The notes under the pieces: generated by a model
Told to the model about the DNA's origin: nothing
Databases searched by the model: none
The model's input: only the letters and a program-made list of their open reading frames with translations
Part shown: one piece after another, positions 32,870 through 60,989 of the stretch
Layout: the number at the start of each line of letters is the position of its first letter
How positions within the stretch are numbered: position 1 is the stretch's first letter
NCBI GenBank assembly: GCA_948567375.1
Contig: OX419755.1
Coordinates: 65,476,944 to 65,540,943, forward strand
Origin: Lunularia cruciata
Taxonomy: Eukaryota; Streptophyta; Marchantiopsida; Lunulariales; Lunulariaceae
DNA length: 64,000 bases
Direction of reading: 5' to 3'
Translations under genes and position numbers: made by a program

Positions 32870-33119
32870 TGATAAGAGACTCAAAATTATTGGCAAGGGT
32901 GTGGAAATGTAGTAAGTGCATATGGAGAGATATAAGTTCCTTATCATATTGTGGAGTTATGATTAGGAGTTGTAGCTTCATGCAAAGAGGTTGATACAAT
33001 ATGCTTTGAGTGGAGCCTTTGTACCCCTAGTGGACCAATTTGATAATGATCCTATGGAATCTATTACCTTGTCACCTTTGGATATCACACTTATTGCTTG
33101 GCAATATTTGGTAGAGTGA
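32870..33119 (+). pseudogene. Element D DNMT remnant, N-terminal leader
   Basis: Text resembles the B leader in order: SGAFVP (about 33,014), a decayed acidic stretch, then SPLDITLIAWQYLVE (about 33,074-33,115). It stops where element C is inserted. The same codon series continues without loss at 41,901 (VYLLYFFGGI), so C interrupted methyltransferase motif I. Confidence 0.8.
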
Positions 33120-33123: not shown

Positions 33124-33817
33124 TGTCATGCGTATATACATCGCTACACAACATACATTGCTGTCAACATCATACACTATAGAAGCACAACTCACGCATA
33201 AGTCATACATAGGCTCTAAAGTCCCACAATTGCACCCTAGCTTTGTTTACAATCAGATTGTTACAACTCTTGAATCCACTCAACTCAGATAAGTACTTGA
33301 TCTGTCACTCTATAAACTACCAACAACTAGGCACTAATTACAATCAAGCCACACCCACTCTAGCTAAGAGAATCCAGATGACGCTTGCCGGCCTCTGTCC
33401 ACCGTATCCAGGAGCTCATAGGCTCAACATCAGAGAAGTAAGCTCTCTGGAGTTGCACTTTGAAAGTATACCCATGGACTCAAGCTAGGTCTAAAATCCT
33501 AATGGTCCCACTGATGACGCACTTGACGATGCAAATGGTGCAAAGGGACGGTGGGCCCCACCATGAAGTCAATACCCTGAACAAGAAATCTGACCGTCAA
33601 AAAGTAGTCTCTGAGAAACTGCTAAAATAACTCTAACTACTATCAATGCAACTCTAGTGTCCGAGCAATCTAGATGCGACACTGCAAGTGACGTGACAAC
33701 TGTCATGCGTATATACATCACTACACAACAAACATCATTGTCAACATCATACATTATAGAAGCACAACTCACACATAAGTCATATATAGGCTCTAAAGTG
33801 CCACAATTGCCCCCTAG
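33124..33817 (-). repeat. Element C 3' terminus: PPT-Q-P-Q
   Basis: Reading - strand from the inside out: polypurine tract CTAGGGGGCAA (about 33,817-33,807), Q (33,806-33,701), AC-GT spacer (33,700-33,699), P (33,698 to about 33,250), a 20-bp piece resembling the polypurine-tract region (CTAGGGTGCAA, about 33,243-33,233), then outer Q (about 33,232-33,124). The outer Q ends at the target-site duplication. The P copy retains the GTGGGCCCCAC palindrome. Confidence 0.85.
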
Positions 33818-33973
33818 GTGGTGGTTAGGTCCCTCTAACTCGAGATAGCCATCTACTCCAAGTATATGGTATACCTTATGATGGGCAAAGATCAAGAGGC
33901 CGGGTGGTATGGAGCTCCATTGTTACTAGCCTATCTGCAATCTATACCATATAAAGAATGAACTAGTTATATG

Positions 33974-34125
33974 TCAACTACATCTAGGACATAACCACTG
34001 TCCTTGAGGAACCACCGTGAGGGGAGGATTCATACATGCTATATGCCATCCTCTTGAACAACTATCACACACTAACATAGAAGTAGCTCTACCAGAAGAG
34101 CCACATAACATATACCTCAAGCCTA
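33974..34125 (-). pseudogene. Element C PHD finger
   Basis: The C4HC3 spacing is kept from the second cysteine (MLCGSSG, VCDSC, GWHIAC, WLCPRC). The first cysteine is replaced by tyrosine (RYMLC). It shows that the PHD finger belongs to the family and is not a feature of B alone. A solo LTR is inserted just upstream in the reading direction. Confidence 0.85.
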
Positions 34126-34148
34126 CACGTACAAGTGCCAAGCTTGGG

Positions 34149-34889
34149 TGTAATACTCCAAGGACAAGAGAAGAGAGAAAACACAGATTGCACACTCAAA
34201 CATTCGATGCTCCAAGGGAGCACCTTCTCTTTATTATATAGACAAAGAGGATCTCCTACAAGGAAGCTACACCATAGGATTAGGGACATAGATAGGTGAC
34301 ATGTCAGCAAGCTCCACCCTTGGATTACTTACTTGGATGGGTGACCTGTCTGGTCTAGGTCCTATCTGGTTGGTCAAACAAGCTTTGACCAGAGGGAATC
34401 TTTTAGGGAATCTTCATGTAGGAATCTCAGAATCACATGAGTAAGGTACCATTGGAAAGCTCTCGACGAGACAAACCAAGGGAGAGGGAAGGCCAGCCTT
34501 TCCTCCATTGGGGGGGGGGAATCTGCACATTTTTGAGGCCTAATTCATCCGTTTAGGCCTCCAAAATTGCCTTCAGAGATTTCAGGCATATTTCGGTTCC
34601 TACTCTATTAGTAGAAGTCCCCTTTTGGTGATACCTCTTTTTGACCTGTTTAGTCCATCATGTGTAACATCCTTCCAGATGTTACCAAACCAATTCTCAC
34701 CTTTAAATCATATGTCTAGCTATTGGTTCTAAGGTTCTCAAGTCTATTTCGGTTTCTGCCCTATTAGTAGAAGTACTCTTTTGGTGATACTTCTATCTGA
34801 TCTATTTTGACCATCAGGTATAACATCATTCTAGATGTTACCAAACCGAATTTCACATCTAGATCATATGGCTAACCCTTGGTATTACA
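34149..34889. mobile_element. Solo LTR (741 bp) inserted in element C
   Basis: Ends are TGTAATAC and GTATTACA, an 8-bp perfect terminal inverted repeat. They are flanked by TTGGG (34,144-34,148 and 34,890-34,894). Removing it restores the AAGCTTGGGTCCATAG string seen in element B. No internal region is present. The right half contains two divergent copies of a roughly 155-bp unit with GTAGAAGT, TTTTGGTGATAC and GATGTTACCAAACC. The parent retrotransposon is not in this window. Confidence 0.82.
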
Positions 34890-34999
34890 TTGGGTCCATA
34901 GTACCATCAATGTTTGGGAGGTGGCATGGCGCACAATTGCGCACATGATCCTTCCAATAACACCATCATGTCCTTCTAACCCAAGGACTCCAGATGGTA

Positions 35000-37960
35000 A
35001 AACCTCATGCACTCTCAAGATAGTGAGGCCTATCTAAACATCAAGTGTCATCGGTGTTGTTTGTTGTAGATATACATAGTCTCATGGATGAAATTGACGG
35101 ATTGAGGGTCTATAACCTCCTCTTTAAATGGTAACATAGCGTAAAGTATCTCTATGTTGAGCAATCGCCAAGTTCTCAAAGGCCATTGGCATCACTCTCC
35201 AAAAGATCTCTGCCCGTTGAGAACATGCGCTCATCCGTACATCAGGGTCATCCAAGTCCAAAACTACATAGCATCTTGAAGAATGGCTATAGGTAAATCT
35301 AGATCTTGTCCATAGAGTAGAAAGTACGAAGAGAAGGATGCTAAGGAGACTTTCCGACTAAACCGATAGCCCATGGCCAACCAAGGTAACTCGAGATCCC
35401 AATCTCCCAAGTGGCCTCTTTGCAAACCATACTTTTGCAATCCTCTCTTCACCATCTGAACCACTCTCTCAGCTAAGTCATCTGCCTCAAGGTGAAATTG
35501 GGATGTAGTATGATGATCAATCAAAGCCTTGTCACACAAGACCTGAAACTCCCCAAGAACTCTATACCCTGATCAGTCAAAACCTTAGCTGGTGCACCAA
35601 AATGACTAAGAACTCGATCTAGGAACAAGTAAGTTGTCCCTTCACTAGACTTGTCAAGAAGTGCCACCAACTCAATCCACTTAGAGAAGTGCTTCACTAT
35701 CACCAAAACATACCGATGATGTCTCACAGTCAACAGTAAAGGTCCAGTGAAGTCCAAACTCCTACGGTAATCCAATCCCATGATAGGTAATGGGTGTAAC
35801 TGTGGCATATGAGCATTAAATGATGCTCTAACTTGGTCACAAACCACACATTTGGCAACAAAATGCTATACCTCGGTCTGCATACCACGCCACCAATAAT
35901 AACTCTGGAGTAAGCTATATGTATGCTTTACTCTAAAATGTCCTAGCTCCTCATGAGCATGACGGACCAATTGTGGTCTCTAAGATGGAAGTGGTACTAC
36001 TTGCACTCTACCATCCTCCCATACACACAAAAGATGTTTACCCTCCAATCTAGACCATCTGGCTTGCTGAAGAACACGGTCTCTCTCCTTGGCCCCAGCT
36101 GTACCACCCACAACACCAATGCAAAGATAGTCCATCACTAAGACATCATCATGAATGTCTCGCTTAATTGTACCAATATCATCACTCTCTGGATCTATGA
36201 CCTCAATAACTCCTCCTATATGCATTGAGAAAGATACCACCAAAGTCTCTAAAAATATACACAGAAAGGCCAATGCATGCCAACCTAGCACCATCTCCTC
36301 AACTTTCTCACCATGCCAACATGCTCTGGTTTGATCCTACTGGTTGGGACATGGGTTTCTACTCAACCTATCTGCATCAAGGTTCACCACTCCAAGTCTG
36401 TGAACAACCGTGAAATCATACTCCTATAAAATCAGAGCCCATTGTGCAAGCTTCCTTGAAAGCTTGTCGTACTCCATCAACCACTTCATTGGCTGATGAT
36501 CAGTGATAAGAGTGAAGGGGTTACCAAATAGGTAACATAAAAAATGTGCTACTACCCAAACTGCTGCCAAGCACTCTCCCTCATATGAACTATACTTCAC
36601 CTCTGCTGAATTATTGGAGCGACTAGCATAGGCCACCACAAACTACTTCTCCTCATCATCATGCTAGGTGAGCACCGCTCCAAGCCCCAACATACTCCAA
36701 TCAGTATGAACCTGAAATGGTCGTCCTCTGATCGGTCTCCTCAAAATAGGAGTAGATGTCAACCTCTCCTTGAGCTCTACAAAAGCTCTCTCCTGCTCAT
36801 CTCCCCAACACCACTCTTGTGTAAGCTTGGTCAGCTTTGTCAAGGCTTTGGCAATGGCATTAAATCCTCTAACATAGCGGCGATAGAAATTTGCCAACCC
36901 ATGGAATGATCACACTTTTCTCACATCCGTAGGCCGAGAAATATGTGCAATAGCCTCCACCTTGGTTTGCTGAACACCAAGTCCTCCGGGGTAGATAGTG
37001 TGACCCAAATACTCAACCTGCTTGTGGAAGAACCTACACTTCCCAAGATGTAATTTGAGTCCATGAGATCTCAACCTCTCAAACACCTTTAACAATTGTC
37101 TCTCATGCTCCTCCATAGCAGTGCTACAGACCAAAATGTCATCAATATAGCACCGAGCAAAATCCAATCCAACTAGGATCCTATCCATGACCCTCTAGAA
37201 CTCAGCAGGAGCATTCTTTAACCCAAACGGTAAGAACCTCCACTAATAGAACACATCCTTACTGTGAGGATCAATAGCCCAAAATGTTGTCTTGGACGTA
37301 TCCTCCTCCTTGATTGGCAACTGATTATATCCCGCTCGAAGATCCAAAGTACTGAAGACCTTTGCATGCCCAATTGCATCAAAAATCTCCTCTGGTGTAG
37401 GTATGGCATATCAATCAGCCCTGGTCTATCAATTGATAAGATGGTAATCTCCACACATCCGCCTATCGGTGTAGTTGCCATGCATATCCTTCTTGGTTGG
37501 CACCATTGTCTCTGATGCATACTCTCCATGTGAAATCTCCACCAAACCAGCCTCAAAAAGGTCACTACTCCGGCTCTGAATCAATGTCCTCTCCATCTCA
37601 CTATATCAATAAGGACATTGGAAAACTAGTGTATTGTTAGTCAGCTCAATCCATATACTAGGTCCCTTTAGAGCACCCAAATCCTTCATATTGATGGCAA
37701 AACAACTTGTGTGGCTCCTCAAGAACCTCCAAACCCTCCGTCTTTCCTCTCTAGTAAGCTTGGGTCCAAGATCTGGCTCCTAAGTATCCTTTGTAATTGT
37801 AGTAGGAGTGGAAGACGTACTAATTGGCTGCTACACTGGGCCCTTGGGAGCAATAGTGTCATGCTCCCGACCACTAGAGGTCCCAACCTCTATGTGAAAA
37901 ACTCACTGCACTTTGGCTGCAACCTCCACACGTCCTCTAGTTGCATCCCAAGTGGACCAA
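35000..37960 (-). pseudogene. pol: Element C RT-RNase H-integrase
   Basis: The segment is collinear with B's pol (offset about 17.17 kb). Recognisable parts are RT with RRMCGDY- and DLRAGY-equivalent regions (37,570-37,260) and YIDDIL (about 37,150-37,130), the RNase H region with TDWSMLGLGAVLT (about 36,700-36,664) and TDHQPMKWLMEYDKL (about 36,510-36,470), the integrase Zn region, SLDFTGP (about 35,755) and LTDQGIEF (about 35,575). Many TAG and TGA stops and occasional indels make it non-functional. Confidence 0.85.
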
Positions 37961-39482
37961 GGGTGTAATCCAAGTAGCCCACGCTCACCTAGATGGACTC
38001 CAAGTAGACCACTCTCCCTAGTAGCTACTGGCTGTGTCCCAAGAATACCATGCCCACTTGGTCCATCGTCCCTAGCATGTGCCTGAATCGTCTTGATAGG
38101 CACAAGGCTCACAAGTGTGATGCCTATGTGGTGATGCCTATGAAGCGCATCTTATGCTCTCTGCCAAGCCAAGGCTCACAATCCAAGTTAAAGAGTTCAA
38201 GTCCATAGCCTGACCTAATACATGACGCTTGGATGCCTCTGACACTGCTAGAACAACGATAATAGCGGTGCAAAAACCCATCGCCCGCTCTCTCTCATCA
38301 ACATTGGGCTCCACCAATTGCTTTAACTATGAGTCCCAAACAAGTCCAGGTCCTCCCTCTCAAAAAGCATGAGAGCTTGGGAAACTCATGAGTGTGGGAA
38401 ATGCAACTCTAGGCTATCCAACTAGGTTCACCATTGCCATAGGTGACCTATCAGCCACTACCAATGTTTGAGATTGACGCTCAACATCCAAGATACCATC
38501 AACAAGGATGTGGTCAAGTCGTTGAATCCCATTATAAGCATGTTGTAGAACCTATTTGGGTAAGAGGTTCGTCCACCAAAGACAAAGACGATGAGCCTGT
38601 GATCCCACTTTGGCTGCATCTAACAATACAGCAAGTCCTATCCAAGAATGGACCTGATGTGTACTCGCCACGACTCTGGTGAAAGAATCACCCATCAAAA
38701 GAACATTCTCCAAAAAGTAAGTTAGAGGAACGGACTGATGAACCTGGAGATGTCATAGTATCCATAACATCTCCCAAAACACACCAGAACAAGGATGTTG
38801 AAGACCCAAACCTTGGCCAGCACGTGTATGTCTCTTACATGGCCATCCAAAAATCACCAAGTGAATAGGTCCATATCTCTCTAGATCATCCGCCCCCAAT
38901 AAGAATGTCTACTAGTAGGGCCTTCAGGTAACCTCTAACTACTGACATCAGTAATAACTCGGGATATTGATAGGCCAAGTGTGCCACATGATGTAGAGAG
39001 ACTTGCCTAGCAGTCTCATCTCTCTCTACATACAAGTACCTCTATACTCGTATACCTGCTTGTAATACCGCAGCCAGTCCAATGTTAATCCCACCGAACA
39101 ACTCCAATAGACATATCTCCTCTATTAGATACTACCAAGCAATGAGTGTGGTATCCAGAGGTGTCAAAGTAATGGACTCTGGAGGCTCATCCTCACACTC
39201 ATCTCTTGATGGTACAAAGGCTCCACTCCAAGCCTACTGCACCAACTGATCTGCATGTTGTTGCAACACCGCCTCTGAAATCCACAATGGAACATCCAAG
39301 GTGGGTGGAACAATCCCACTCATACTCTAAATCCGAGTGATCTCCTTTGGTATTGGAGTATCCTTTGCATGGGCGTTCCTCTCCAACAATCACCAGGCCA
39401 AGTAACTGCACCACTGAAAGCTAAAACTAATGCTGCCATGGTCCCGGACTGTAGTGAGCCAAGACTGTCACTACTAAAGCGT
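37961..39482 (-). pseudogene. Element C DNMT domain
   Basis: It is collinear with B's methyltransferase. The catalytic segment GWPC is still readable at about 38,845-38,835 and motif I is recognisable near 39,110-39,080, with scattered stops. The reading ends abruptly at about 39,483, at the codons equivalent to FNSGSLGSL, where unrelated sequence begins. Confidence 0.78.
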
Positions 39483-41642
39483 AATAGAGTATGTACATGA
39501 CTAACACCGTTTGAGAGTAATCCACCCTAGGGAACACAAAAGGCTCAGGTTGCTCCAAGATTTCTATAGTAACATCAAATCCTAGAGTGCATATTAATTG
39601 AACCCTCATGGATAGTTTATCCATAAGTTGAAAGATTATCTCCATCACTAATCTTGAGAACTAGCTGATGATGGTGATAGTATTTTTATAGTTGTACTAA
39701 GACTCTCTCCAAGATCCTTCACCAAAGTCTCCAAAAGTGATTTTACTCCACTACACTCATGTCCTTTTGGAAGTCCTTCAACTCCACAAACCTCACACAA
39801 CTCTTTGGTCTTAGATCTTCTCCCTCCCAATCTTGGTGAAGAAGGTCTAACATGCAAACCCAAGTCAAGTAAGCCTCTCCTTTCCCTCAATCTCTTGCTC
39901 TCAAAGGTCAATGGACATGAACTTGCCTTATGTCTCTTCTCTCCACATAGAAAGCACTTAGACTCACTCTTTCCTCCGAGTGGTGTAGGTTTTTGGATCC
40001 TCTCAACACTCTCTTCAAATTCTCTTATAAACTCTCTTTTCCTCAAATCCACCCCTACAATCACCTCAAAACCTTGGGGAACCTTGCCTAGTCTCAATTT
40101 TCATGTTCCCAAGATGAATCTAAACACTCAAACATGCTTTTAGTTGCTCTCAAACTCCTCATGCATGAGATCTCCACTTTGCAGAATTGACCCTTCCTCA
40201 CAATTTCACTCAGGTCTCTTAACTAGTATGTGATAGTCATCTGAAATTTTGCACACGTAATTACAACTCTAGTGTGTCCCTCCATGCAACATTTCAAATC
40301 TTTTTATTGATCCATTTGGCCTAGACACTTTTCTATTCAGCACACATATTTCAGATTTGGTCTGAAAACCATCCCCTTCACTTCAAAAACTCATAACTCC
40401 TTGCACAAGAATGATCTCTCTATACTTTTTGTGGCAGAAAGTAGGATACAATGCACTTAATCTTCTTGGAAATTTTCAGGAAAATTCAATAAAATTTGAA
40501 GAAATGGCAGACTCTGTACAATTTTCCAGAGAGCATGCAGTTGTGAGAGCAGTTTACCCTATCAACTTTCAAAAATTCTAACCCAGTGCGCATAGTAGCT
40601 CTCACAATAATTTCAAGTGTTCTAACTAAAAGATAACCTAAGCTATCATGTGTAGAAATTTCATGTCCAGATCTCAAACTTGAGATTTTGCCCAAAATCA
40701 CCTTAATCCCCAAAATCTGCAATCCACCTCACACAATCTCTCCAAATCCTCGCATGTGTACAAGATGTATAAAATCACTTCAAAGACATCATAATGAACA
40801 AAAGGGTATAAAAATGGATCTTGGTTCTCTAACATAAGTTCAACACTCTCCTCTCCTAATGTTCTCTCCAAGTGAGCTCTCATAGCCTCCTTCTGTCTAA
40901 TGTAGAATTGAACGCGGAACATTATCTTGCCTTCTAGAGAGGTCTTGGCAATGGAACCAAAAATGTGAGCCAGCTTGTCTCTCACTCAAGATAAACCTTT
41001 GGTGGCTATTATGGTAGCGCACCATGGACTAAGAAGGCAAGGAACCCCAACTCCATCATACTCCTCCAAGGCTAACACTCCAAGACTCAAGACATTGCTC
41101 ACTGAGAATTCAATGAGAGAGAGATAGTTGCAAATGAAAGGATGATGAGTACCTCCTCACCCCATGTTATATACTTGTGAAATAGTTACGTACCAAAGTT
41201 ACTAATTATCATAGTAACTCAAGTTACTAGACTAAAAGTCAAGTAAAGTCAAAAAGTAGAAAGGAATATCTATTCACATGGGCATATTCCCCTAAGCATG
41301 TGGTCTTATCTTGACCCAACCACTAAGTCAAGGATTCCTTCACATGTGCTTTCCTTGGACTAAAGAAGAATCCAAAACAAAAAGGCTTGCGGGCCCAAGA
41401 GTTCTCCACTCTTTCCTCAAAGCCAAACACCTAGGGATAATTTTAGTCAACACACTAAAATCCAGAATAGTGGTGCTCATCTTTTCTACTTCCTCTAAAG
41501 TAAAGTCCTCTCTATCTTAGCTATGACTAACTTTAGCTAACCATGACTAATATAGAACCATCATTTATCTCTATATAAATGATATCTCTTGAGTACTTGT
41601 AATACCAAGCTAAATATCACAATACCACACACATGCACAAAT
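39483..41642 (-). other. Foreign 2.2-kb segment replacing the 5' half of element C
   Basis: This segment is unrelated to the family and sits between C's DNMT and a truncated P. On the - strand one open frame (40,097-39,648, 149 codons) has a CX2CX4HX4C zinc knuckle (CFLCGEKRHKASSC) and a second Cys/His cluster (CEVCGVEGLPKGHEC). Another (40,985-40,698) and a third (39,648-39,470) share a similar domain with PF..P.V.Y and YILY. A TATAA-like site lies near 41,170 on the - strand. It could be a captured host gene or the gag of an unknown element. I do not recognise it. Confidence 0.5.
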
Positions 41643-41900
41643 GGGTGTTATAGCTCTCTAGAGCTTCACTTTGAAAGTATACCCTTGGACTCGAGCTAGG
41701 TCTAAAACCCTAACGGTCCCATTGACGGCACACTTGACGGTGCAAAGTGACAATGGGCCCCACCGTGAAGTCAGTACCCCAAACACGAAATCTGACCGTC
41801 AGAAAGTAATCTCTGAGAAACTGCTAAAATAACTCTAACTACTATCATTGCAACTCGAGTGTCCAAGCAATCTAGATGCGACACTACAAATGGCGTGATA
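41643..41900 (-). repeat. Element C 5' terminus: truncated P repeat
   Basis: Only the outer 258 bp of P remain, from the TSD side (TATCACGCC on the - strand) inward to the point equivalent to the GAGAGCTCACTT segment. The inner part is lost to the foreign segment. The GTGGGCCCCAC-type palindrome is partly preserved (ATGGGCCCCACCGT). Confidence 0.85.
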
Positions 41901-47824: not shown

Positions 47825-47844
47825 CATTCTTACTCTAATACCAA
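47825..47844 (-). other. Primer binding site of element G (tRNA-iMet type)
   Basis: Immediately inside the 5' LTR the - strand reads TTGGTATTAGAGTAAGAATG. This matches the common plant iMet primer site TGGTATCAGAGC at 10 of 12 positions. Its place, directly after the LTR's terminal TTTTACA, supports the LTR boundary. Confidence 0.75.
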
Positions 47845-49754: not shown

Positions 49755-49935
49755 ATCCAAGCTTGGTAGTTGTACGGGTAGGCTTGTAGTGCATGTTATG
49801 TGGCTCTCTTGGAGGAGCTCCTATTATGTTTGTATGTGATAGTATTCAAGAGGATGGCATATGACATGTTTGACTCCTCCACTCACGATGGTTCCTCAAA
49901 GGCAATGGTTATGTTCTTGATGTTCTTGACACCTT
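49755..49935 (+). pseudogene. Element D PHD finger remnant
   Basis: Text equivalent to CMLCGSSGGA.TM.VCDS is followed, after a one-base shift, by GWHMTCLTPPLT and QRQWLC. It is the third PHD copy seen in the family, preserved in position after the integrase tail. Confidence 0.75.
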
Positions 49936-50226: not shown

Positions 50227-50503
50227 ATTTTATTTTATTTTATATTATTTTATTTTTTGTTGGCACCAAAGCTAGTTGACAAGATATTGGAGTGATAGTC
50301 TTGGTAGTCACCGTTATATCCATAGGTACTCAAGGACTACTTAGTGGCGGTGGATATTATGTTAGGTTCTTGATTGCACCGTTAGAGCCACCATTTTCAT
50401 TGCCAATGTTGTCAAATGTGCCATTTAGTGTGCCATTAAGGCTAGACTCCTTGGCCATCCTAGGAGTATATACTTTGAAGTGCAACTCTAGAGAGCTCAC
50501 TTC
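50101..50503 (+). repeat. Element D 3' terminus, first part: Q, microsatellite, P (interrupted)
   Basis: A polypurine tract (CTAGGGTGCAA, about 50,087-50,097) leads into Q (about 50,101-50,165), whose end has expanded into a (TG)n, (AT)n and (TTTTA)n tract. P begins near 50,262 and is cut by element B at 50,503. The remainder of P resumes at 60,990. Confidence 0.82.
50161..50262. repeat. Compound microsatellite (TG)n(AT)n(TTTTA)n
   Basis: TG repeats (50,161-50,178), AT-rich repeats (to about 50,222) and TTTTA units (to about 50,262) lie at the Q-P junction of element D, the same place as the AT tract in element E. Confidence 0.92.
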
Positions 50504-51722
50504 TGTCGTGCGTATATACATCGCTACACAACATACATCGCTGTCAACATCATACACTATAGAAGCACAACTCACACATAAGTCATACATAGACTCTAAA
50601 GTGCCACAATAATCAGATTGCTTAACAATTCAACTCAACTCAACTCAGATCAGTACTTGATCTGTCACTCTATAAACTGCCAACAACTGGGCACTGATTA
50701 CAGTCAAGCCACACCCACTCAAGCATAGAGAATCCAGGTGACGCTCGCCGGCCTCTGTCCACCATAGCCAGGAACTCGAAGGCTCAACATCAGAGAAGTG
50801 AGCTCTCTGGAGCTCACTTCGAAACTATACCCCCTGGACTCGAGCTAGCCCTGAAACCCTAACGGTCCCGCTGACGGCACACTCGACGGTGCAAACGGTG
50901 CAAAGTGACGGTGGGCCCCACCGTGAAGTCAGTACCCTGAACACGAAATCTAACCATCGGAAAGTAGTCCTTGAGAAACAGCTAGAATAACTCTAACTAC
51001 CATCACTGGAACTCTAGTGTCCAAGCATCTAGATGCGGAACTACAAATGGCGTGACAGCTGTTGTGCGTATATACATCGCTACACAACATACATCGCTGT
51101 CAACATCATACACTATAGAAGCACAACTCACACATAAGTCATACATAGACTCTAAAGTGCCACAATAATCAGATTGCTTAACAATTCAACTCAACTCAAC
51201 TCAGATCAGTACTCAGATCTGTCACTCTATAAACTGCCAACAACTGGGCACTGATTACAGTCAAGCCACACCCACTCAAGCATAGAGAATCCAGGTGACG
51301 CTCGCCGGCCTCTGTCCACCATAGCCAGGAACTCGAAGGCTCAACATCAGAGAAGTGAGCTCTCTGGAGCTCACTTCGAAACTATACCCCTTGGACTCGA
51401 GCTAGCCCTGAAACCCTAACGGTCCCGCTGACGGCACACTCGACGGTGCAAACGGTGCAAAGTGACGGTGGGCCCCACCGTGAAGTCAGTACCCTGAACA
51501 CGAAATCTAACCATCGGAAAGTAGTCCCTGAGAAACAGCTAGAATAACTCTAACTACCATCACTGGAACTCTAGTGTCCGAGCATCTAGATACGGAACTA
51601 CAAATGGCGTGACAGCTGTCGTGCGTATATACATCCCTACACAACATACATCGCTGTCAACATCATACACTATAGAAGCACAACTCACACATAAGTCATA
51701 CATAGACTCTAAAGTGCCACAA
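50504..51722 (-). repeat. Element B 3' terminus: Q-P-Q-P-Q
   Basis: Reading - strand outward: Q (51,722-51,617), GC, P (51,614 to about 51,167), Q (about 51,166-51,060), GC, P (51,057 to about 50,610), Q (about 50,609-50,504). Two 557-bp units are nearly identical. The ancestral family ending is Q-P-Q, so B has gained one extra P-Q unit. Each Q-to-P junction has the palindrome GACAGCTGTC (once with one change). The outermost Q ends at the target-site duplication. Confidence 0.92.
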
Positions 51723-51735
51723 TCGCCCCCCTAGC
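51723..51735 (-). other. Polypurine tract of element B
   Basis: The - strand reads CTAGGGGGGCGAT immediately before Q, which begins TGTGGCAC. The same tract and position are seen in C (CTAGGGGGCAAT), D and E. In an ordinary LTR element this is where plus-strand priming defines the start of the 3' LTR, which here would be Q rather than P. Confidence 0.75.
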
Positions 51736-52031: not shown

Positions 52032-53135
52032 CCTCAAGCCTGCACGTACAAGTGCCAAGCTTGGGTCCATAGTACCATCAATGTTTGGGAGGTGGCATGG
52101 CGCACAATTGCGCACATGATCCTTCCAAACAACACCATCATGTCCTTCTAACACAAGGACTCCAGATGGCAAAACCTTGCGCACTCTCAAGATAGTGCGG
52201 CCTGTAGAAACATCAAGTGTCGTCGGTGCTGTCTGCTGTAGATATACATAGTCTCCTCGATGAAATCGACGGATTGAGGGTCTATAACCTCCTCCTTGAA
52301 TGGTAGCATAGCGTAAAGTATCTCTATGCTGAGCAATCGCCAAGTTCTCAAAGGCCATCGGCATCACTCTTCAAAAGATCTCTGCCCGTTGAGAACATGC
52401 GCTCATCCATACATCGAGGTCATCCAAGTCCAAAACTACAGTAGCATCTCGACGAATGGCTGCAGGTAAATCTGGATCTCGTCCATAGAGTAGAAAGTAT
52501 GGAGAGAAGGATGCTAAGGAGGCTTGCCGGCTGAACCGATAGCCCATGGCCAACCAAGGTAACTGGAGATCCCAATCTCCCAAGTGGCCTCTCTGCAAAC
52601 CATACTTTCGCAATCCTCTCTTCACCGTCTGAACCACTCTCTCTGCTAAGCCATCTGCCTCAGGGTGATCTCGGGATGTAGTACAATGATCAATCAAAGC
52701 CTTGTCACACAAGACCTGAAACTCTCCCAAGAACTCTGTACCCTGATCAGTCAAAACCTCAGCTAGTGCACCAAAATGACTAAGAACTCGATCCAGGAAC
52801 GAGTAAGCTGTCCCTTCACTAGACTTGTCAGGAAGTGCCACCAACTCAATCCACTTGGAGAAGTGCTCCACCATCACCAAAACATACCGATGATGTCTCA
52901 CAGTCAGCGGTAAAGGTCCGGCAAAGTCCAAACTCCAACGGTAACCCAATCCCATGATAGGTAATGGGTGTAACTGTGGCATAGGAGCATTGAATGATGC
53001 TCTAACTCGGTCACAAACCACACATCTGGCAACAAATTGCTGTACCTCGGTCTGCATACCGTGCCACCAATAATGACTCTGGAGTAAGCTATATGTACGC
53101 TTTACTCCAAAATGTCCTAGCTCCTCATGAGCATG
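52032..53135 (-). pseudogene. Integrase domain of element B
   Basis: An N-terminal HHCC zinc domain (HEELGHF ... CVVC) is followed by the DDE core: D in SLDFAG, D in LTDQGTEF and E in GLAERVVQ, with 34 residues between the second D and the E. HPEADGLAER fits the Ty3 HPQTDGQTER motif. A TGA at 52,371-52,373 (CGA to TGA) separates the core from the tail. The tail contains a short basic beta-like segment before the PHD finger. The 4-bp target duplication agrees with a DDE integrase rather than a tyrosine recombinase. Apart from the stop the domain looks intact. Confidence 0.93.
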
Positions 53136-54896
53136 ACGGACCAACTGTGGTCTTTGTGATGGAAGTGGTACTACTCGCACTCTACCATCCTCCCATACAC
53201 GCAAAAGGTGTCTACCCTCCAATCTGAACCGTCTGGCTCGCTGAAGAACACGGTCTCTCTCCTTGGCCCCAACTGTGCCACCCACAACACCAGTGCGAAG
53301 ATAGTCCATCACTAAGACATCATCATGAATGTCTCGCTGAACTGTACCAATATCTTCACTCTCTGGATCTGTGACCTCAAAAACTCCTCCTGTATGCGCT
53401 GAGAGAGATATCACCAAAGTCTCTGCAAATATACACAGAAAGGCCGATGCATGCCAACCTGGCACCATCTCCTCATCTGTCTCACCATGCCAACGTGCTC
53501 CGGTCTGATCCTGCTGGCTGGGACATGGGTTTCTACTCAACCCATCTGCATCACGGTTCACCACTCCAGGTCTGTGAACAACCGTGAAATCATACTCCTG
53601 TAAAATCAGAGCCCATCGTGCAAGCTTCCCTGAAAGCTTGTCGGACTCCATCAACCACTTCAGCGGCTGATGATCAGTGATGAGAGTGAAGGGGTTACCA
53701 AATAGGTAACATCGGAAATGTGCTACTGCCCAAACTGCTGCCAAGCACTCTCCCTCATATGAACTATACTTTGCCTCTACTGAATTGTTGGAGCGACTAG
53801 CATAGGCCACCACAAACTCCTTCTCCTCATCATCATGTTGGGTGAGCACCGCTCCAAGCCCCAACATACTCCAATCAGTGTGAACCTGAAATGGTCGTCC
53901 CCTGATCGGTCTCCTCAAAATAGGAGCAGATGTCAACCTCTCCTTGAGCTCTACAAAAGCTCTCTCCTGCTCATCTCCCCAACACCACTCCTGTGTAAGC
54001 TTAGTCAGCTTCGTCAAGGCCTTGGCAATGGCACTAAATCCTCTAACATAGCGACGATAGAAGTTTGCCAACCCAAGGAATGCTCGCACTCTGCTCACAT
54101 CCGTAGGCCGAGGAATACGTGCAATAGCCTCCACCTTGGTCTGCTGAACACCAAGTCCTCCGGGGTAGATAGTGTGACCCAAATACTCAACCTGCTCATG
54201 GAAGAACCTACACTTCCCAGGATGTAATTTGAGTCCATGAGATCTCAACCTCTCAAACACCTCCAACAACTGTCTCTCATGCTCCTCCACAGTAGTGCTA
54301 TACACCAAAATGTCATCAATATAGCACCGAGCAAAATCCAGTCCAGCTAGGATCCTATCCATGACCCTCTGGAACTCAGCAGGAGCATTCTTCAACCCAA
54401 ATGGTAAGAATCTCCACTGATATAACACATCCTTGCCGTGAGGATCAATAGCCCAAAATGCTGTCTAGGACTTATCCTCCTCCCTGATCGGCAACTGATG
54501 ATATCCCGCTCGTAGATCCAAAGTACTGAAGACCTTTGCATGCCCAATCGCATCAAAAATCTCCTCCGGTGTAGGCATGGCATACCGATCAGCCCTGGTC
54601 TGTCGGTTGATAGGATTGTAATCTCCACACATCCGCCTATCTGTATAGTTGCCATGCATATCCTTCTTGGCTGGCATCACTGTCGCTGACACATACTCTC
54701 CATGTGAAATCTCCACCAAACCAGCCTCAAAAAGGTCACTACTCCGGCTCTGAATCAATGTCCTCTCCATCTCACTATATCGATAAGGACGTCGGAAAAC
54801 AGGTGTGTCACTAGTCAGCTCAATCCGTATACCAGGTCCCTTCAGAGCACCCAAATCCTTCATACTGAAGGCAAAACAACTCGTGTGACTCCTCAA
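53136..54896 (-). pseudogene. pol: Reverse transcriptase and RNase H of element B
   Basis: RT begins after the linker with the Ty3 signature IELTSDTPVFRRPYRYS, then MCGDYNPINRQT, FSTLDLRAGYHQLPI, WRFLPFGLKNAPAEFQRVM and the active site YIDDIL. One TAG (54,465-54,467) interrupts it between the DLRAGY and WRFLPFG blocks. RNase H follows with TDWSMLGLGAVL, YEGECLAAVWA, TDHQPLKWLM and NRDADGLSR supplying the acidic residues. A spacer of about 130 residues, unlike known domains, leads to integrase. These enzymes copy the element's RNA into DNA inside the particle. Confidence 0.95.
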
Positions 54897-55340
54897 GAAC
54901 CTCCAAACCCTCCGTCTTTCCTCTCCAGTAAGCTTGGGTCCAAGATCTGGCTCCCAAGTATCCTCTGTAATTGTAGTAGGAGTGGAAGACGTACTGATTG
55001 GCTGCTATACTGGGCCCTTGGGAGCAATGGTGTCATGCTCCCGACCACTAGAGGTCCCAACCTCTGTGTGAAAAACTCCCTCCACTCTGGCTGCAAGCTC
55101 CATACGTCCTCTGGCTGCATCCCATGTGGACCAAGGGTGTAATCCAAGTAGCCCACGCTCACCTGGATGGACTCCAAGTAGACCACTCTCCCTAGTAGCT
55201 ACTGGATGTGTCCCAAGAATACCATGTCCACTCGGTCCATCGCCCCCAGCATGTGCCTGAATCGTCTCGATAGGCACAGGGCTCACAAGTGTCCGAGTGG
55301 TGATGCCTATCAAGCGCATCCTACGCTGCTCTGCCAAACC
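54897..55340 (-). pseudogene. Linker between methyltransferase and RT (element B)
   Basis: About 150 residues with no known domain. A Gly/His/Leu-rich stretch repeats a motif (ESGLLGVHPGE, then RGLLGLHP) and ends in a Thr/Ser-rich segment and an RRRVWRFLRSH helix. A TAG at 55,005-55,007 interrupts the frame. It probably serves as a flexible spacer or protease-cleavage region separating the methyltransferase from RT. Confidence 0.6.
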
Positions 55341-56687
55341 AAGGCTCACAATCCAGGTCAAACAGTTCAGGTCCATAGCCTGACCTAACACCTGACGCTT
55401 GGATGCCTCTGACACTGCTGGAACAGCGGTAATACCGGTGCAAAAACCCATCGCCCGCTCTCTCTCATCAGCATTGGGCTCCACCAACTGCTGTAACTGT
55501 GAGTCCCAAACAAGTCCAGGTCCTCCCTCTCGAAAAGCATGAGAGCCTGGGAAACTCATGAGTGTGGGAAATGCAGCTCTAGGCTGTCCAACTAGGTTCA
55601 CCACTGCCATGGGTGACCTATCAGCCACTACCACTGTCTGAGACTGACGCCCAACATCCAAGATATCATCAACAAGAATGTGGTCCAGTCACTAAATCCC
55701 ATCATAAGCACGCTGTAGAACCTCTCTGGGTAAGAGGTTTGTCCACCAAAGACGAAGACGATGAGCCCGTGATCCCACTCTGGCTGCATCTAACAATACA
55801 GCAGGTCCCATCCAAGAATGGACCTGATGTGTACTCGCCACCACTCTAGTGCAAGAATCACCCATCAATGGAACGTTCTCCAAAAGGTAAGCTGGAGAAA
55901 CAGACTGATGAACCTGGAGATGTCGTAGTATCCGTAACATCTCCCAAAACACACCAGAACGAGGATCCTGAAGACCCAAACCGTGGCCCGCACGTGTATG
56001 TCCCTGACATGGCCATCCAGAAATCACCAAGTGAATAGGCCCATGTCTCTCTAGGTCATGCGCCCCCAGTAAGGAAATGTCTCCTGGTAAGGCCTTCTGG
56101 TAACCTCTGACTGCTGACATTGGTAATAACTCCGGATACCGATAGGCCAAGTGTGCCACATGATGTAGAGAGACTCGCCTAGCAGTCTCATCTCTCTCTA
56201 CATACAAGTACCTCTGTACTCGGATACCCGCCTGTAACACCGCAGCTAGTCCGGTGCTGATCCCACCAAACAACTCTAATAGACATATCCCCTCTACTGG
56301 ATACTGCCAAGCAATGAGTGTGGTATCCAGAGGTGTCAAAGCAATCGCCTCTGGAGGCTCATCCTCACACTCATCCCCTGATGGTACGAAGGCTCCACTC
56401 CAAGCCTGCTGCACCAACTGATCTGCATGTTGCTGCAATGCCTCCTCTGAACTCCACAATGGAACATCCAAGGTGGATGGAACAATCCCACTTGTACTCC
56501 ATAGCCGAGTGATCTCCTCTGGTACTGGAGTATCCTCTGCATGGGCGTTCCCCTCTAATAAGTCACCAGGCCAAGTAACTACACCGCTGAAAGCCAAAAC
56601 TGATGCTGCCATGGTCTCGGACTGTAGTGAGCCAAGACTGCCACTATTGAAGCGTACTGGTAGGCGACATACCCGTCCCTCACCAGA
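55341..56687 (-). pseudogene. C5-cytosine DNA methyltransferase domain, DNMT3-like (element B)
   Basis: All key C5-MTase motifs appear in canonical order. Motif I is LLELFGGISTGLAAVL (SAM binding). Motif IV is SGWPCQGH, with the catalytic Cys at 56,007-56,009. Motif VI is LLENVP. Motif VIII is SRAHRLRLWWTNLLP. A short target-recognition region follows, then ERERAMGF (IX) and KRQVLGQAMD (X). The order is not permuted, unlike plant DRM enzymes. The AHR.R..W.NL.P block and the short C-terminus resemble DNMT3. It is in frame with protease and RT. The only lesions are TAG at 56,688, and TAG plus TGA at 55,689-55,694, all C-to-T type. It would transfer methyl groups to cytosine, probably on new cDNA or chromatin. 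Confidence 0.92.
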
Positions 56688-57479
56688 CTACCAACCAGGT
56701 CTATAAGAGGTTGTCTCCTCCCAATAGTCAATACTGAAACCCATAGGGTATAACACTGCTCCCCCAACTAGCACATCATATGACTCAGCTATCGTCGCAA
56801 TAGCCTGAGCTCTCACCACTGAGCTATCAGTCGGATGACCAGGCTGAACCTGGACAACAAGCTCCCCACGTGTGATGTATTGTGTCGAACCACCACCAAG
56901 AGATGTTTGGATCTGAAATGGACACCTCTCCACATCGGTCTTCCGTAACTCCAGACCAACAACTGCAGCCTTCCCCAACATAAGGGGCTGCGCACCAGAG
57001 TCTAACAAGACTCTTTGTGGTGTATAGACCTTCCCTGAAGGTCCTACCAAACGAAAGATCCCCCTCTGGTTATCCAATAGGACAACACCAGGTGTAAACC
57101 GCGCTCTCTCAAAGGCCGGTCTAGCTGGCAACTCCTCCAGTCTAGCCGCTGCTGCCTGCCATAAACCACTGGTCGCTGAACGGATCCCATGCTCCTCAAC
57201 CAAGTCAGCTCTACTACCAACCACCTCTGCTCTAGTAGTAGAAACTGCACCATCCCTACTCTCACACAACGTGGCAGCCAATCGGAACACTGGGGCTGGG
57301 TCAACTCCCAATGTAAACATGTCACTGGCTGAAAATAAAGGATGCCGCATAATCAGCTGAGCCGCCCCCAACATCATGCTAGACTCAGTCTGTGTAGTAG
57401 CAGGTGGCTGACTAGCAGGTAGTCCATCATGTACTCCATCACCACCTACCACACCTGCACTAGGACGTCTAGGAACCAT
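56688..57479 (-). pseudogene. Aspartic protease of element B
   Basis: The active-site motif is VLLDSGAQPLML, followed by the flap region, then YDVLVGGAVLYPMG near the C-terminus, which corresponds to the ILG(M)DWL position of Ty3 proteases. It would process Gag-Pol. It begins after TAG stops at 57,633 and 57,489 in the same frame, and a TAG at 56,688-56,690 separates it from the methyltransferase. The first 100 residues are a low-complexity Ala/Glu-rich region. Confidence 0.88.
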
Positions 57480-59292
57480 GGATGTCGTCTACAATGCCTC
57501 AGATAGCGTGAAAGACTGGGGAAGTCTGACCTGTCTCCCAACCTCTCCTCTCTGTGGGTCCAACTCCACTGATGCTCCTCTAGGCTCTGGAGCACGTACT
57601 GCACTCCTAGTCACTGCTGCAAATGCATCCACCTATGTTGCTCCGCACATGAAGTCCAAAGCATCTCTATCACCAGCATATGAGGTGGAAGCCTCAGCAC
57701 CTGAATCTGATCTCCTATGAGCAATAGCCATACTAGCCAATCTCTGCTCCAACTGCTCAATCCGAGTAGCCATAGCTGTGTCAGAAGTAAGGGCGGGTAC
57801 TGCACCCCTACTAGGTGTAGATCCTCTACCACCACCTCTACCACCTCGTCCTCCATGAACTGGAGCTCCTCTACTACCTGCCATAGCAGCCCTACCACTC
57901 CATAACTCCAGGTGTAGGTCAAAACACCGGTCACTAGTATGACCAAATCTATGGCAATGCTCACACTGCCTCTGTGCTGGCTGTGATGCACCAGAGGTAT
58001 CAGGTCCGCTGCCCTGAGTACACTCTCTCCTATGGTGAGGTCCACCACAAGTCCAACAAGCAACACCACCACTCACTGGCTGCTGCTGACCCAAAAATGA
58101 GGGTAAGAGGTCTAACTCCACTAGGCCCTCCACTCGCTCCATAGGATCTAGGCTGTCCACCCTGTCCTCGAAAACCAACTGGGCGTGGTGCACTCTGCTG
58201 CACTCTAGAAGAAGTCACAACCGTGGATGAGGTCTCCCTACCAAATCCAGATGTCACCACTCTCTCCTCCACCATGTTGAGCTCAATACGCTCAGCCAAA
58301 CCAAAGACTACTGCCAAAGTGGGCGAAGTAGCCTGCAACAACGTAGCATCACGAACTCTACGTCGCAACTCCCTGTCCAGTATCCCATACCAAAACTGGA
58401 CTGCCTGGGCCTCAGTAACTCCCTGAGTGAAACTGATCAGCCGCCTCATGCGAGTGTATGCCTCGCGTAGGCTCTCTCCAGCCTTCCGCTGGAACTCCTG
58501 CAAGCTCCTCAGCTTGTCAGTCCGCACTCCCTGGTAGTTCTGCCTCAAACATAGGAAGAACTCAACCATAGGGTTAAACCATGGTACCACACCACCTCCT
58601 GCAGCGGTACCTCCACTCGTAGTAGCACTATCTCCAGCTAGTGCACCTCCACTAGCTCCACCAACACTACTCGAGCTAGAACTCGTAGGTACAGCCGACC
58701 TACTCCTGGCCACCGAACCTGAAGTGATGGAGACATAGTGTGGAGACCAATATTGTCTCCATAACTCAATCTCCTCCAAATGAGCTCTCCTGAACTCATG
58801 GTAGTCGTCCATCGGTGGACCCTCCAAGTGCTGAAACAACCCCTTCCATGCCATGAAAGGTGTGAACAAAGTCGGGTTCCGCATCTGCTGCAGATCACAC
58901 CAACTATCAAACTCTTGGATGAAGTCATCCAACTCAATGGTACCCACTGTACCAGAGTAACGCCTAGGGCCTTTGGAGGCCCCATAAATCTCGTCCATGT
59001 CCCACAACAACGGTGCGGACACACCAAGTGCACTCTCAACTGAATCAGCTCGTGTGTCGAACTCCAACTCAGAGGCAATCTCCTCCCTCATTGGGACCTG
59101 AGATACAGGCTGATACCGAGTACCACTCCGAGTAAACCCACTGCGTACTGCAGGGCTAACTCCTCTGGAATCTCCAAAGAACTCCGTCGTGACCACGTAA
59201 CTGCAACAGCAAACCCGAACCACCAACTGCAACCGCAAGTCGCAACTGCAAGTGCTCCACCAAGTGCCAACACCACCACGTGCCAACACCAA
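57480..59292 (-). pseudogene. gag: Gag of element B with two zinc knuckles
   Basis: The capsid-like core has FLCLRQNYQGV, LREAYTRMRRLISF, FWYGILDRELRRRV and AVVFGLAERIE, typical of retrotrans_gag. It is followed by two CCHC knuckles, CWTCGGPHHRREC (CX2CX3HX4C) and CEHCHRFGHTSDRC (CX2CX4HX4C), a Gly/Arg-rich segment (GGRGGRGGGRG) that may bind RNA, and a short coiled coil (RIEQLEQRLASM). A single frameshift near 58,080-58,160 separates the core frame (59,292-58,030) from the knuckle frame, which is the pol frame. The true ATG is uncertain: the listed 59,292 end is a TTG codon. Confidence 0.85.
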
Positions 59293-60535
59293 CTAAACAC
59301 CACCCACTAATGTAACTCTACCGAGATAACTACACTAGGGGAAGGGCAACCTGTAACCTGCCATCATAACACGCACTCTCACGGTCTGCAGGTCATCACT
59401 TCCTGCCTCACCGGAGAGAAACAAAGGTAGTCTGACTGGTCATCACTCCAGCCTCACCATCGAGAGCACACCAGAGCACCAACACTCAAAAGTCAAGGCA
59501 CCTCACACAAACGTGGTGCACAAACAGGAAGCAGAGAATGGAGGGGATCCAATCACAAGAAATCTAAACAAAAACCCTCCATCTCATAACACAACACGGG
59601 ACTGACTCTGCCACCATTTGGCATTTGACATAAGAGTAGTTCGTATCTAAGTCCTAAGCTACCAGGATCACCAAGAATGGGATCAAACTGCCTCTCCTAG
59701 CCAAAGCTACATGTGTATAGATAACAGTGGCACAGTCACTATGACAACAAGTGAAGGTGGACCAGTTGGCTAGGGCACCAGTCTAGGAACAAGAGATCTA
59801 GGGGTCAAACCCTGTTGCGCACAATCTAGCAAGAAAGGCAGATTTTGCCAACCAATGACCAAGATCTACACTAAACTAGCTAGCCTCACGCCAGCAAGCT
59901 GGCTTGCTGGCCCTTCTGGCCCTTCTAGGCCTTCGTAGCCTCTCATAGCCCACAACCCTATGCCTCGAAGCCTCGAAGCCTCTAAACGCCGAAATTCAGC
60001 CAAATGAGGCCTTTCTTGTTGCCACTTCGAACCTCCTCCAAAATTGGCGAAACTTCTCCAAATCTGCGAAACTCCTCCAAACTAGCGGAACTTCTCCAAA
60101 TCTGGCCAAACAGCAAAACTCCTCCAAATCTGACGTAAACCCTAAAGATGGATGTCTGCCAAATCCCCCGCTAACTTTCCACTCGAGCCAAATTGACAAA
60201 ACGGGTTTTTCCAAATCACAATTTCATGAGAAGAGCTTTCCAACTCCACCTTCAATTTCACTTTCTGAGGCCAACTTGCAGCAAATTGGTCCTGCCTTCA
60301 CCTCCTGAGCTCAAAATCACAACACTGCTCAAAAATTGCTCCTTCTTTGCTCGAAATTTGGCCAGCGCTTCCGCACACCGTCCGCCTAACTGCCAAATTT
60401 GCATCAACTACACGAGCTTCTGCACACTAGGGAAACATAGAACCTGAATCGAGCTACCACGATCCACCGAGCTTGGAGATACCACCAACACTCAACGTTC
60501 CTGCACCCAATTTCCCCCTGACTTCACTTCTCTGA
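59293..60535 (-). other. 5' leader of element B
   Basis: 1.2 kb between the 5' P repeat and gag, with no domain. A stretch at 60,120-60,000 repeats CTCCAAATCTG-like units. A possible iMet-like primer site (TGGTGGCAGAGTC on the - strand, about 59,613-59,601) sits far from P, so it is uncertain as a PBS. Directly after P the - strand reads TCAGAGAAGTGAAG, which is not a clear match to a tRNA 3' end that I can name. Confidence 0.5.
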
Positions 60536-60985
60536 TGTAATCAGATTGCTTAACAATTCAACTCAACTCAACTCAGATCAGTACTTGATCTGTCACTCTA
60601 TAAACTGCCAACAACTGGGCACTGATTACAGTCAAGCCACACCCACTCAAGCATAGAGAATCCAGGTGACTCTCGCCGGCCTCTGTCCACCATAGCCAGG
60701 AACTCGAAGGCTCAACATCAAAGAAGTGAGCTCTCTGGAGCTCACTTTGAAACTATACCCCCTGGACTCGAGCTAGCCCTGAAACCCTAACGGTCCCGCT
60801 GACGGCACACTCGACGGTGCAAACGGTGCAAAGTGACGGTGGGCCCCACCGTGAAGTCAGTACCCCGAACACGAAATCTAACCATCGGAAAGTAGTCCCT
60901 GAGAAACAGCTAGAATAACTCTAACTACCATCACTGGAACTCCAGTGTCCGAGCATCTAGATGCGGAACTACAAATGGCGTGACA
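60536..60985 (-). repeat. Element B 5' terminus: single P repeat
   Basis: 450 bp that start TGTCACGCCATTTG at the target duplication and end CAATCTGATTACA. It is nearly identical to the two P copies at the 3' end. It is not followed by Q, whereas both 3' P copies are. It holds the palindrome GTGGGCCCCAC and spaced ACGGTG repeats (60,818-60,852), and a TTTATAG TATA-like site near 60,600 that could drive transcription. Confidence 0.92.
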
Positions 60986-60989
60986 CTTC

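What the first reader, a model, noticed from the sequence alone, without database searches (positions are those of the whole stretch)
55341..56687. Ty3 retrotransposon carrying a complete DNMT3-like DNA methyltransferase between protease and RT
Seen: C5-MTase motifs I, IV (PC), VI (ENV), VIII, IX and X in canonical order, in the same frame as protease and RT, with copies in C and D. Known: DNMT-bearing retrotransposons have been reported in dinoflagellates and charophyte algae (as I recall, de Mendoza and colleagues 2018). I do not recall one described with this domain set in a land plant. Inference: a cytosine-methylation writer travels in the particle and could methylate cDNA or the insertion site, either to hide from or to tame silencing. 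The layout looks DNMT3-like, not permuted like DRM.
Basis: partly seen in the sequence, partly recalled or inferred. Interest (0 to 1): 0.93.

Follow-up and report, generated by a model that had tools for sequence, protein, structure and literature searches.

The report
Retrotransposon carrying a DNA methyltransferase gene
A jumping gene in what looks like a moss- or liverwort-type plant carries its own DNA-methylating enzyme, a rare arrangement known from a few algae; relatives in public data suggest it is old and widespread in green plants.

Summary
Window 56687-55340 (minus) encodes an unpermuted C5-cytosine methyltransferase (MTase) between protease and RT of a Ty3/Gypsy element (PF00145 5.5e-8; relatives to 3.8e-125). 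This copy is broken. The kind is known: DNMT-bearing Gypsy elements of Klebsormidium (PMC5890265), with the same A-coding-B-A-B repeats. What I add: (1) the MTase ends the Gag-protease ORF, and a UAG-CARYYA leaky-stop context precedes RT in 26 of 26 copies compared, so the enzyme is probably made at Gag, not Pol, level; (2) the integrase ends in a PHD finger; (3) 4-bp target duplications flank the A start and B end in 17 of 18 copies assessed, from which I infer that a DDE integrase inserts a permuted, probably circle-derived, DNA; (4) relatives occur in liverworts, Sphagnum, Closterium and, by gene labels, chlorophytes; elements with the MTase before integrase instead of before RT form one clade in MTase and RT trees. 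Function is inferred: methylation of the element's own DNA. Inserted copies carry the CG+CHG decay of ordinary silencing. DNMT3 versus phage-like origin is unresolved. Other copies were found through their MTase, so how many lack it is unknown.

The parts
60986..60989 (.). 4-bp target duplication GAAG, upstream side
   Evidence: sequence; same 4 bases follow the B3 end at 50503-50500
60538..60985 (-). repeat A1 (448 bp), element start TGTCACGCC
   Evidence: same start in 17 fetched genomic copies
60530..60536 (-). primer-binding-site-like ATCAGAG directly after A1 (tRNA-iMet-like; tRNA assignment recalled)
58033..59292 (-). gag (open piece)
   Evidence: Retrotrans_gag weak, E 0.0093, below the curated cut-off; matched at 85-98% aa identity in 19 of 20 fetched copies
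57636..58214 (-). CCHC zinc-knuckle region between gag and protease (in another frame than gag in this copy)
   Evidence: translation; gag-CCHC-PR-MTase is one ORF of 1428 aa in 2 of 20 fetched copies
56691..57488 (-). aspartic protease region
   Evidence: no Pfam match itself; relative P0105 has Asp_protease_2 and DNA_methylase in one ORF; 94-98% aa identity in 20 of 20 fetched copies
55340..56687 (-). C5-cytosine methyltransferase; this copy has two adjacent internal stops (55694-55689)
   Evidence: PF00145 5.5e-8; homologs to 3.8e-125; DNMT3A 1.3e-21 by profile; motif positions
55008..55339 (-). tail of ORF1 after MTase motif X
   Evidence: open to the TAG in 2 of 20 copies with whole ORF1
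54999..55007 (-). TAG CAG CCA: stop in UAG-CARYYA readthrough context between ORF1 (MTase) and ORF2 (RT)
   Evidence: 26 of 26 copies TAG + CARYYA; role of CARYYA in plants PMC2754532 (passages)
54468..55004 (-). reverse transcriptase, N part
   Evidence: ORF2 of 1037 aa open from the codon after TAG in 2 of 20 copies
52374..54464 (-). RT end, RNase H, integrase H2C2 and rve core
   Evidence: PF00078, PF17917, PF17921, PF00665
51894..52370 (-). integrase C terminus with PHD finger (finger about 52031-51897)
   Evidence: PF00628 2.9e-11; PDB relatives CHD4, KMT2D, KDM5, PHF12, ATXR5
51723..51732 (-). polypurine tract AGGGGGGCGA
51617..51722 (-). repeat B1
51611..51620 (.). B|A junction palindrome GACAGCTGTC
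51166..51614 (-). repeat A2
51060..51165 (-). repeat B2
50610..51057 (-). repeat A3 (extra unit of this copy)
50504..50609 (-). repeat B3, element end ACGACA
50500..50503 (.). 4-bp target duplication GAAG, downstream side
33124..41900 (-). copy C of the same family, 91.7% DNA identity over 4.6 kb, flanked by GTAT/GTAT
32943..33116 (+). MTase fragment of the older element into which C inserted

Best explanation
It is a broken copy of a multi-copy Ty3/Gypsy retrotransposon, a relative and variant of the DNMT-bearing elements described from Klebsormidium. ORF1 encodes Gag, CCHC, protease and, at its C end, an unpermuted C5-MTase; a leaky UAG-CARYYA stop is read through at low frequency to add RT, RNase H, DDE integrase and a PHD finger (ORF2). 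Shown: domain order, shared frame, shared stop and context, A-coding-B-A-B repeats, 4-bp target duplications, many copies, one RT clade for the MTase-bearing elements sampled. Inferred: that readthrough happens; that the MTase is therefore made at Gag-like amounts and freed by the protease in the particle; that it methylates the element's newly made DNA (probably CG) so that the copy enters the genome already methylated and is accepted and kept silent, limiting damage; and that the PHD finger helps choose the insertion site by reading histone H3.
For: Architecture and frames; ORF1 1428 aa open in 2 of 20 and ORF2 1037 aa open in 2 of 20 selected copies, none with both; TAG+CARYYA 26 of 26; MTase core N/S among shared variants 0.41 of the expected ratio (25 N, 26 S), like RNase H-integrase 0.45; MTase core 66% identical to Marchantia P0102 while its N linker is 47% and protease 55%; RT clade 100/99 including three Klebsormidium elements against five other Ty3 elements; two SymbioDIRS retrotransposon DNMTs methylate CG de novo in yeast (PMC5890265, section read); viral CARYYA-type contexts gave 32% (TMV) and 11% (BNYVV) readthrough in a plant assay (PMC2754532, passages).
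Against: No activity data; the Klebsormidium Gypsy DNMT gave no methylation in yeast, called inconclusive. The 26 copies are close relatives, and the variants at YY are C-to-T, which keep Y whatever selection does, so they are not 26 independent tests of the stop. Some relatives hold MTase and RT in one ORF without a stop (P0180, P0212), so readthrough is not universal. In one search the MTase linker (0.42) and tail (0.35) are as low as the core, so within this family the test does not single out the catalytic part, counts are small, and copies were chosen for long open frames. The footprint of inserted copies is CG plus CHG, host-like, and the same for a Ty3 pair with no MTase seen, so no sign of the element's own enzyme is visible.
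Confidence: 0.6

Rival explanations
1. The MTase is a passenger: a captured domain without a role in the life cycle, kept by chance and shared descent.
For: The three MTase elements in the window are all decayed or interrupted; other Ty3 families persist beside it; no activity shown for the Klebsormidium relative; linker and tail have N/S as low as the core.
Against: N/S of shared variants as low as for integrase; core better conserved than linker and protease against Marchantia P0102 and Calypogeia P0094; where a GxPC motif was found it reads GWPCQ in 81 of 83 proteins (of 166 listed, many partial); retention in two positions of the polyprotein.
Confidence: 0.13
2. The MTase works on host DNA or host silencing, for example methylating competitors or disturbing the host methylome to the element's benefit.
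For: At least 25 copies verified in this genome; Gag-level expression predicted.
Against: Inserted copies look silenced in the ordinary CG+CHG way and a Ty3 pair with no MTase seen looks the same; Klebsormidium has a land-plant-like methylome.
Confidence: 0.15
3. The MTase modifies the element's RNA (DNMT2-like) rather than DNA.
For: C5-MTase folds can act on RNA; the authors of PMC5890265 raise this for LINE DNMTs.
Against: Profile match far better to DNMT3 (1e-21) than to DNMT2 (2.6e-5).
Confidence: 0.08
4. The domain descends from a phage or virus C5-MTase rather than from a plant DNMT3.
For: BLASTP: for 14 of 16 retro-MTases a phage enzyme is the best non-retro match; PHROG 116 at 4.8e-22 for P0094; 121 phage records match P0006; PCQ motif like Dcm (recalled).
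Against: The comparison is tilted: phage rows were full length and picked by a retro-MTase query, DNMT3 rows were pieces. PDB profile favours DNMT3. In the tree without four long rows, retro plus DNMT3 lie on one side against five phage enzymes, 98/99. Tree unrooted and outgroup small; in the fuller tree one phage row joins the retro clade, flagged as a long-branch join.
Confidence: 0.3

Closest known systems
KnitGypsy-Dnmt3 of Klebsormidium nitens (PMC5890265)
   Same: Ty3/Gypsy, unpermuted DNMT in the coding region with RT, DIRS-like A-coding-B-A-B repeats; three K. nitens elements fall in the same RT clade
   Different: here a shared UAG puts the MTase in the Gag-protease ORF; PHD finger documented (the word PHD is not in the paper's main text); land-plant-type host; target duplications recorded; wider distribution
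SymbioDIRS-Dnmt3 (dinoflagellates, PMC5890265)
   Same: retroelement with DNMT in pol, split direct repeats, two domain orders
   Different: tyrosine recombinase there, DDE integrase and 4-bp target duplications here
Plant chromoviruses
   Same: Ty3/Gypsy with a chromatin-reader domain at the integrase C end
   Different: PHD finger, not chromodomain

Membership tests
DNMT-bearing Ty3/Gypsy (KnitGypsy-Dnmt3 kind) | Ty3 order RT-RNaseH-integrase | tested here: met
DNMT-bearing Ty3/Gypsy (KnitGypsy-Dnmt3 kind) | unpermuted DNMT in the coding region next to RT | tested here: met
DNMT-bearing Ty3/Gypsy (KnitGypsy-Dnmt3 kind) | DNMT in the Pol polyprotein ORF, uninterrupted with RT | tested here: not met
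   same frame but a UAG lies between in 26 of 26 copies; hence filed as a variant
DNMT-bearing Ty3/Gypsy (KnitGypsy-Dnmt3 kind) | DIRS-like repeats A-coding-B-A-B | tested here: met
   this copy: (with one extra A-B); full pattern seen in 16 of 20 fetched copies; legend
DNMT-bearing Ty3/Gypsy (KnitGypsy-Dnmt3 kind) | shared ancestry of RT with K. nitens elements | tested here: met
   clade 91/91 inside a 100/99 clade against 5 outgroup Ty3; whether those three K. nitens gene models carry the DNMT was not seen
DNMT-bearing Ty3/Gypsy (KnitGypsy-Dnmt3 kind) | purifying selection on the DNMT | tested here: inconclusive
   shared N/S 0.41 of expectation, small counts, linkers equally low, copies chosen for open frames
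DNMT3 family | motif order I-IV-VI-VIII-X | tested here: met
DNMT3 family | nests within eukaryotic DNMT3 | tested here: inconclusive
DNMT3 family | methylates CG de novo | not testable with these tools
   no assay
DRM | permuted catalytic domain | tested here: not met
   the host's own DRM-like gene (L003) is permuted
DIRS | tyrosine recombinase, no target duplication (second criterion recalled) | tested here: not met
   rve integrase; 4-bp duplications in 17 of 18
Chromovirus | chromodomain at integrase C end | tested here: not met
   PHD PF00628 instead

The most novel reading that the evidence does not exclude
One ancient acquisition gave rise to a green-lineage clade of Ty3 elements in which a C5-MTase and, in many members, a histone-reading PHD finger have been kept together from chlorophytes to bryophytes. 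In the lineage of this window's element the writer sits in the Gag ORF behind a leaky UAG, so it outnumbers RT in the particle, and the DNA is inserted by a DDE integrase from a circularly permuted (2-LTR-circle-like) form cut at a palindromic B|A junction, unlike textbook LTR elements.
Probability: 0.38. Interest if true: 0.78.

Novelty: new variant of a known kind. Interest (0 to 1): 0.62.

Why it matters
It shows that retrotransposons carrying a DNA-methylation writer are not a curiosity of one alga but occur in land-plant-type genomes in many copies. It offers a testable system for why a transposon would encode the very mark used to silence it. The writer in the Gag ORF and the PHD reader on the integrase make a write-and-read hypothesis that can be tested by protein biochemistry. 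The permuted insertion with target duplications, if confirmed, would be an uncommon integration route for a DDE integrase.

Tried and rejected
Rejected: chance similarity (E-values); host MTase gene beside a transposon (same frame as PR and RT; same place in 20 of 20 MTase-found copies); DRM (permuted); reading the MTase-RT TAG as decay (26 of 26 copies). Phage contig L001 carries a plain phage Dcm and was used only as a comparison row. Plasmids: no match at 1e-5. Genome contigs: no relative. The idea that the MTase spares copies from silencing was tested by deamination footprint and not supported. Structure prediction could not be run, so no fold search was made. A genome-wide copy count, a search for the D subfamily and an MTase-blind search for copies were not obtained: the genome search answered once. 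The integrase row was read out of frame by my slip (26 stops) and gives no result. Paper searches for retrotransposon DNMTs in bryophytes or green algae brought up, as far as titles, abstract starts and passages show, PMC5890265, PMC6338049 and PMC12344493; several lists were cut (15 of 22, 15 of 39, 12 of 111, 12 of 24, 12 of 14) and the library holds open-licence papers only, so absence from print is not shown.

Dropped rows: 4 of 20 copies (L014, L017, L018, L026) not assessed for target duplication because an end was missing or mutated; L022 assessed and negative. Trees: one search used 20 of the 28 proteins that hold MTase with RT or RNase H, plus three pairs joined by equal contig length (an inference) and four other rows; one search left out three short type-2 rows, and one K. 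nitens row and the Tetrabaena row did not enter. One search left out four long rows. The 20 fetched copies were chosen for long open frames out of 123 scored rows. The first part of the B-C alignment is poorly matched and is within its counts.

Full report
Observation. On the minus strand, 57488-51894 reads protease, MTase, RT, RNase H, integrase and PHD finger in one frame, with stops. The MTase piece 56687-55695 hits PF00145 at 5.5e-8 (33 bits, cut-off 22), and 91 public proteins match it at E <= 0.001, best 3.8e-125. Named sources include Calypogeia fissa, Marchantia polymorpha and M. paleacea, Riccia sorocarpa, Sphagnum species and Closterium; most others are entries without an organism name. 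The copy is interrupted: a stop between protease and MTase, two adjacent stops within the MTase, frame changes in the gag-CCHC part. Copy C differs from it at 209 of 1834 aligned bases, of which 114 are C or G here and T or A in C (the first stretch of that alignment is poorly matched), the mark of deamination.

Genome. The window lies in a 566-Mb genome (74 contigs, unnamed). PF00145 gave 123 scored matches from 2161 candidates. Of 29 that I looked at, 25 are this element (20 fetched, four loci L006-L009, and this copy) and four are host genes: two DNMT3-like genes split into exons, a DRM-like and a CMT-like gene (gene names by motif, recalled). I did not verify the other 94 rows. Because these copies were found by their MTase, copies that lack it would not show.

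Structure of the element. In 20 copies chosen for long open frames, ORF1 (gag-CCHC-protease-MTase) is an uninterrupted 1428 aa in 2, and ORF2 (RT-RNase H-integrase-PHD) an uninterrupted 1037 aa in 2; none has both. ORF2 begins at the codon after a TAG that closes ORF1. That TAG is present in 26 of 26 copies (24 genomic loci and window copies B and C), followed by CAGCCA (22), CAGCTA (3) or CAGTCA (1), all CARYYA. CARYYA after UAG is the readthrough context of tobacco mosaic virus; TMV and BNYVV contexts gave 32% and 11% readthrough in a plant assay (PMC2754532, passages only). So the MTase is at the end of the Gag-protease ORF and RT is, on this reading, an extension. Caveats: these copies are recent relatives, so this is one lineage's state. 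In other lineages some public ORFs also end within 150 aa after motif X with like ends (P0057, P0070, P0093 in SATK; seven others in IQ), though I saw proteins only, not the DNA at the stop; P0180 and P0212 run on into RT.

Ends. In 16 of 20 fetched copies one search shows A, coding region, B, A, B; the others are truncated or rearranged at an end. The element begins with TGTCACGCC, has an ATCAGAG primer-site-like motif after A, and ends, after a polypurine tract, with B-A-B (...GCACGACA). This copy has B-A-B-A-B. Four bases are duplicated at the two outer ends in 15 of 16 genomic copies with both ends in hand, and in window copies B (GAAG) and C (GTAT): 17 of 18. The integrated ends are therefore the A start and the B end, not the ends that the primer site and polypurine tract define. 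The sequences next to those two sites (...GATTA and TTGTGG...) abut at A2|B2, and B|A reads GACAGCTGTC or a form one transition or so away (A|B junction matched in 16 of 21 copies, B|A in 19 of 21). I infer a circle with two BA units opened by the DDE integrase at a B|A palindrome. The repeat layout itself was reported for K. nitens (PMC5890265, section read).

Constraint and silencing. Among up to 21 copies, N/S of variants shared by at least two copies, divided by the expected ratio, is 0.41 for the MTase core (25/26), 0.52 protease, 0.67 RT, 0.45 RNase H-integrase; the MTase linker is 0.42 and tail 0.35, so the core is not singled out; singletons are 0.87 for the core. Against Marchantia P0102 the core is 66% identical, the MTase N linker 47%, protease 55%; RT-RNase H is 78% and the integrase tail with PHD 81% against two other Marchantia proteins. 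Singleton C-to-T (or G-to-A) changes fall on 101 of 263 CG, 169 of 495 CHG and 117 of 1823 CHH sites, against 54 of 2645 transitions at A/T. A Ty3 pair in the window with no MTase seen shows the same pattern. Copies look silenced like other elements.

Relationships. A profile of six retro-MTases matches solved DNMT3A/3B/3C at 1e-21 to 1e-17 in colinear order, DRM at 3e-10 over half, M.HaeIII and M.HhaI at 5e-8 and 1e-7, DNMT2 at 2.6e-5; no structure labelled DNMT1 or CMT was among the 57 matches at 0.01. Retro-MTases form one group (100/99, 16 rows; 100/100, 15 rows). Against a plain DNMT3 descent, BLASTP gives a phage enzyme as best non-retro match for 14 of 16, with the bias noted under the rivals. 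Descent is open. Of 123 proteins tested (118 from the ORF2 search and five earlier MTase hits), 34 contain the MTase: 16 before RT, 12 between RNase H and integrase, 5 before integrase on pieces without RT, and one rearranged Marchantia gene model. The second layout is one clade in the MTase tree (SH-aLRT 100, 12 rows, quick method) and in the RT tree (100/100, 7 rows). The RT tree joins all MTase-bearing rows and three K. nitens elements at 100/99 against five other Ty3 elements. Against strict co-descent: P0193 and P0216 sit beside the second layout in the MTase tree (84) but with the bryophyte-type elements in the RT tree (88/80 and 96/93), and P0267 falls weakly (70) beside the outgroup in the MTase tree. 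Gene labels place members in Tetrabaena and in 'Tetstr1', which I recall as Tetraselmis. The simplest reading is one old acquisition and one change of position, whose direction is not settled, rather than a capture in the Klebsormidium lineage as the 2018 paper proposed. The outgroup is small, so this is support and not proof.

Prior work. PMC5890265 (abstract, introduction, first two Results sections, the charophyte and yeast sections, and the Discussion read) is the precedent. PMC6338049 (passages) states that methylase-bearing transposons are not present in land plants such as tracheophytes. PMC12344493 (passages) mentions DNMT3 in retrotransposons of streptophytes. None of the passages I saw names bryophytes as carriers. 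The bryophyte proteins found extend the range.

PHD finger. PF00628 at 2.9e-11; best solved relatives are fingers of CHD4, KMT2D, MLL3, PHF12, KDM5 and, lower, ATXR5. A role in insertion-site choice is inference by analogy with chromoviruses (recalled).

Noticed in passing
window 29617-50157: An older plus-strand element of the same kind appears cut by copy C (33124-41900) inside its MTase gene and by another Ty3 element (about 42727-48212) inside its RT; integrase-PHD resumes at 48215-49908. The target duplication of the second insertion was not found.
   Followed up: partly
window 1-3727 and 42727-46212: A second Ty3 family, two copies 85% identical, only about 34% identical in RNase H-integrase to the MTase element; no MTase seen with them.
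   Followed up: partly
window 50504-51722: This copy has an extra A-B unit (B-A-B-A-B) inside an intact 4-bp target duplication, suggesting multi-unit circles or recombination.
   Followed up: no
P0218, P0220, P0223, P0227, P0228, P0233, P0236, P0237, P0245, P0249, P0250, P0251: Related elements with the MTase between RNase H and integrase, a second domain order.
   Followed up: yes
L043 and L044: Two host DNMT3-like genes split into exons in the same genome, roughly 40% identical to human DNMT3A over aligned pieces and distinct from the retro-MTase.
   Followed up: partly
P0150 (Marchantia polymorpha Mp_7g09570): Gene model joining a partial MTase to an integrase-PHD tail; either a deletion copy or a gene-model artefact.
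   Followed up: no
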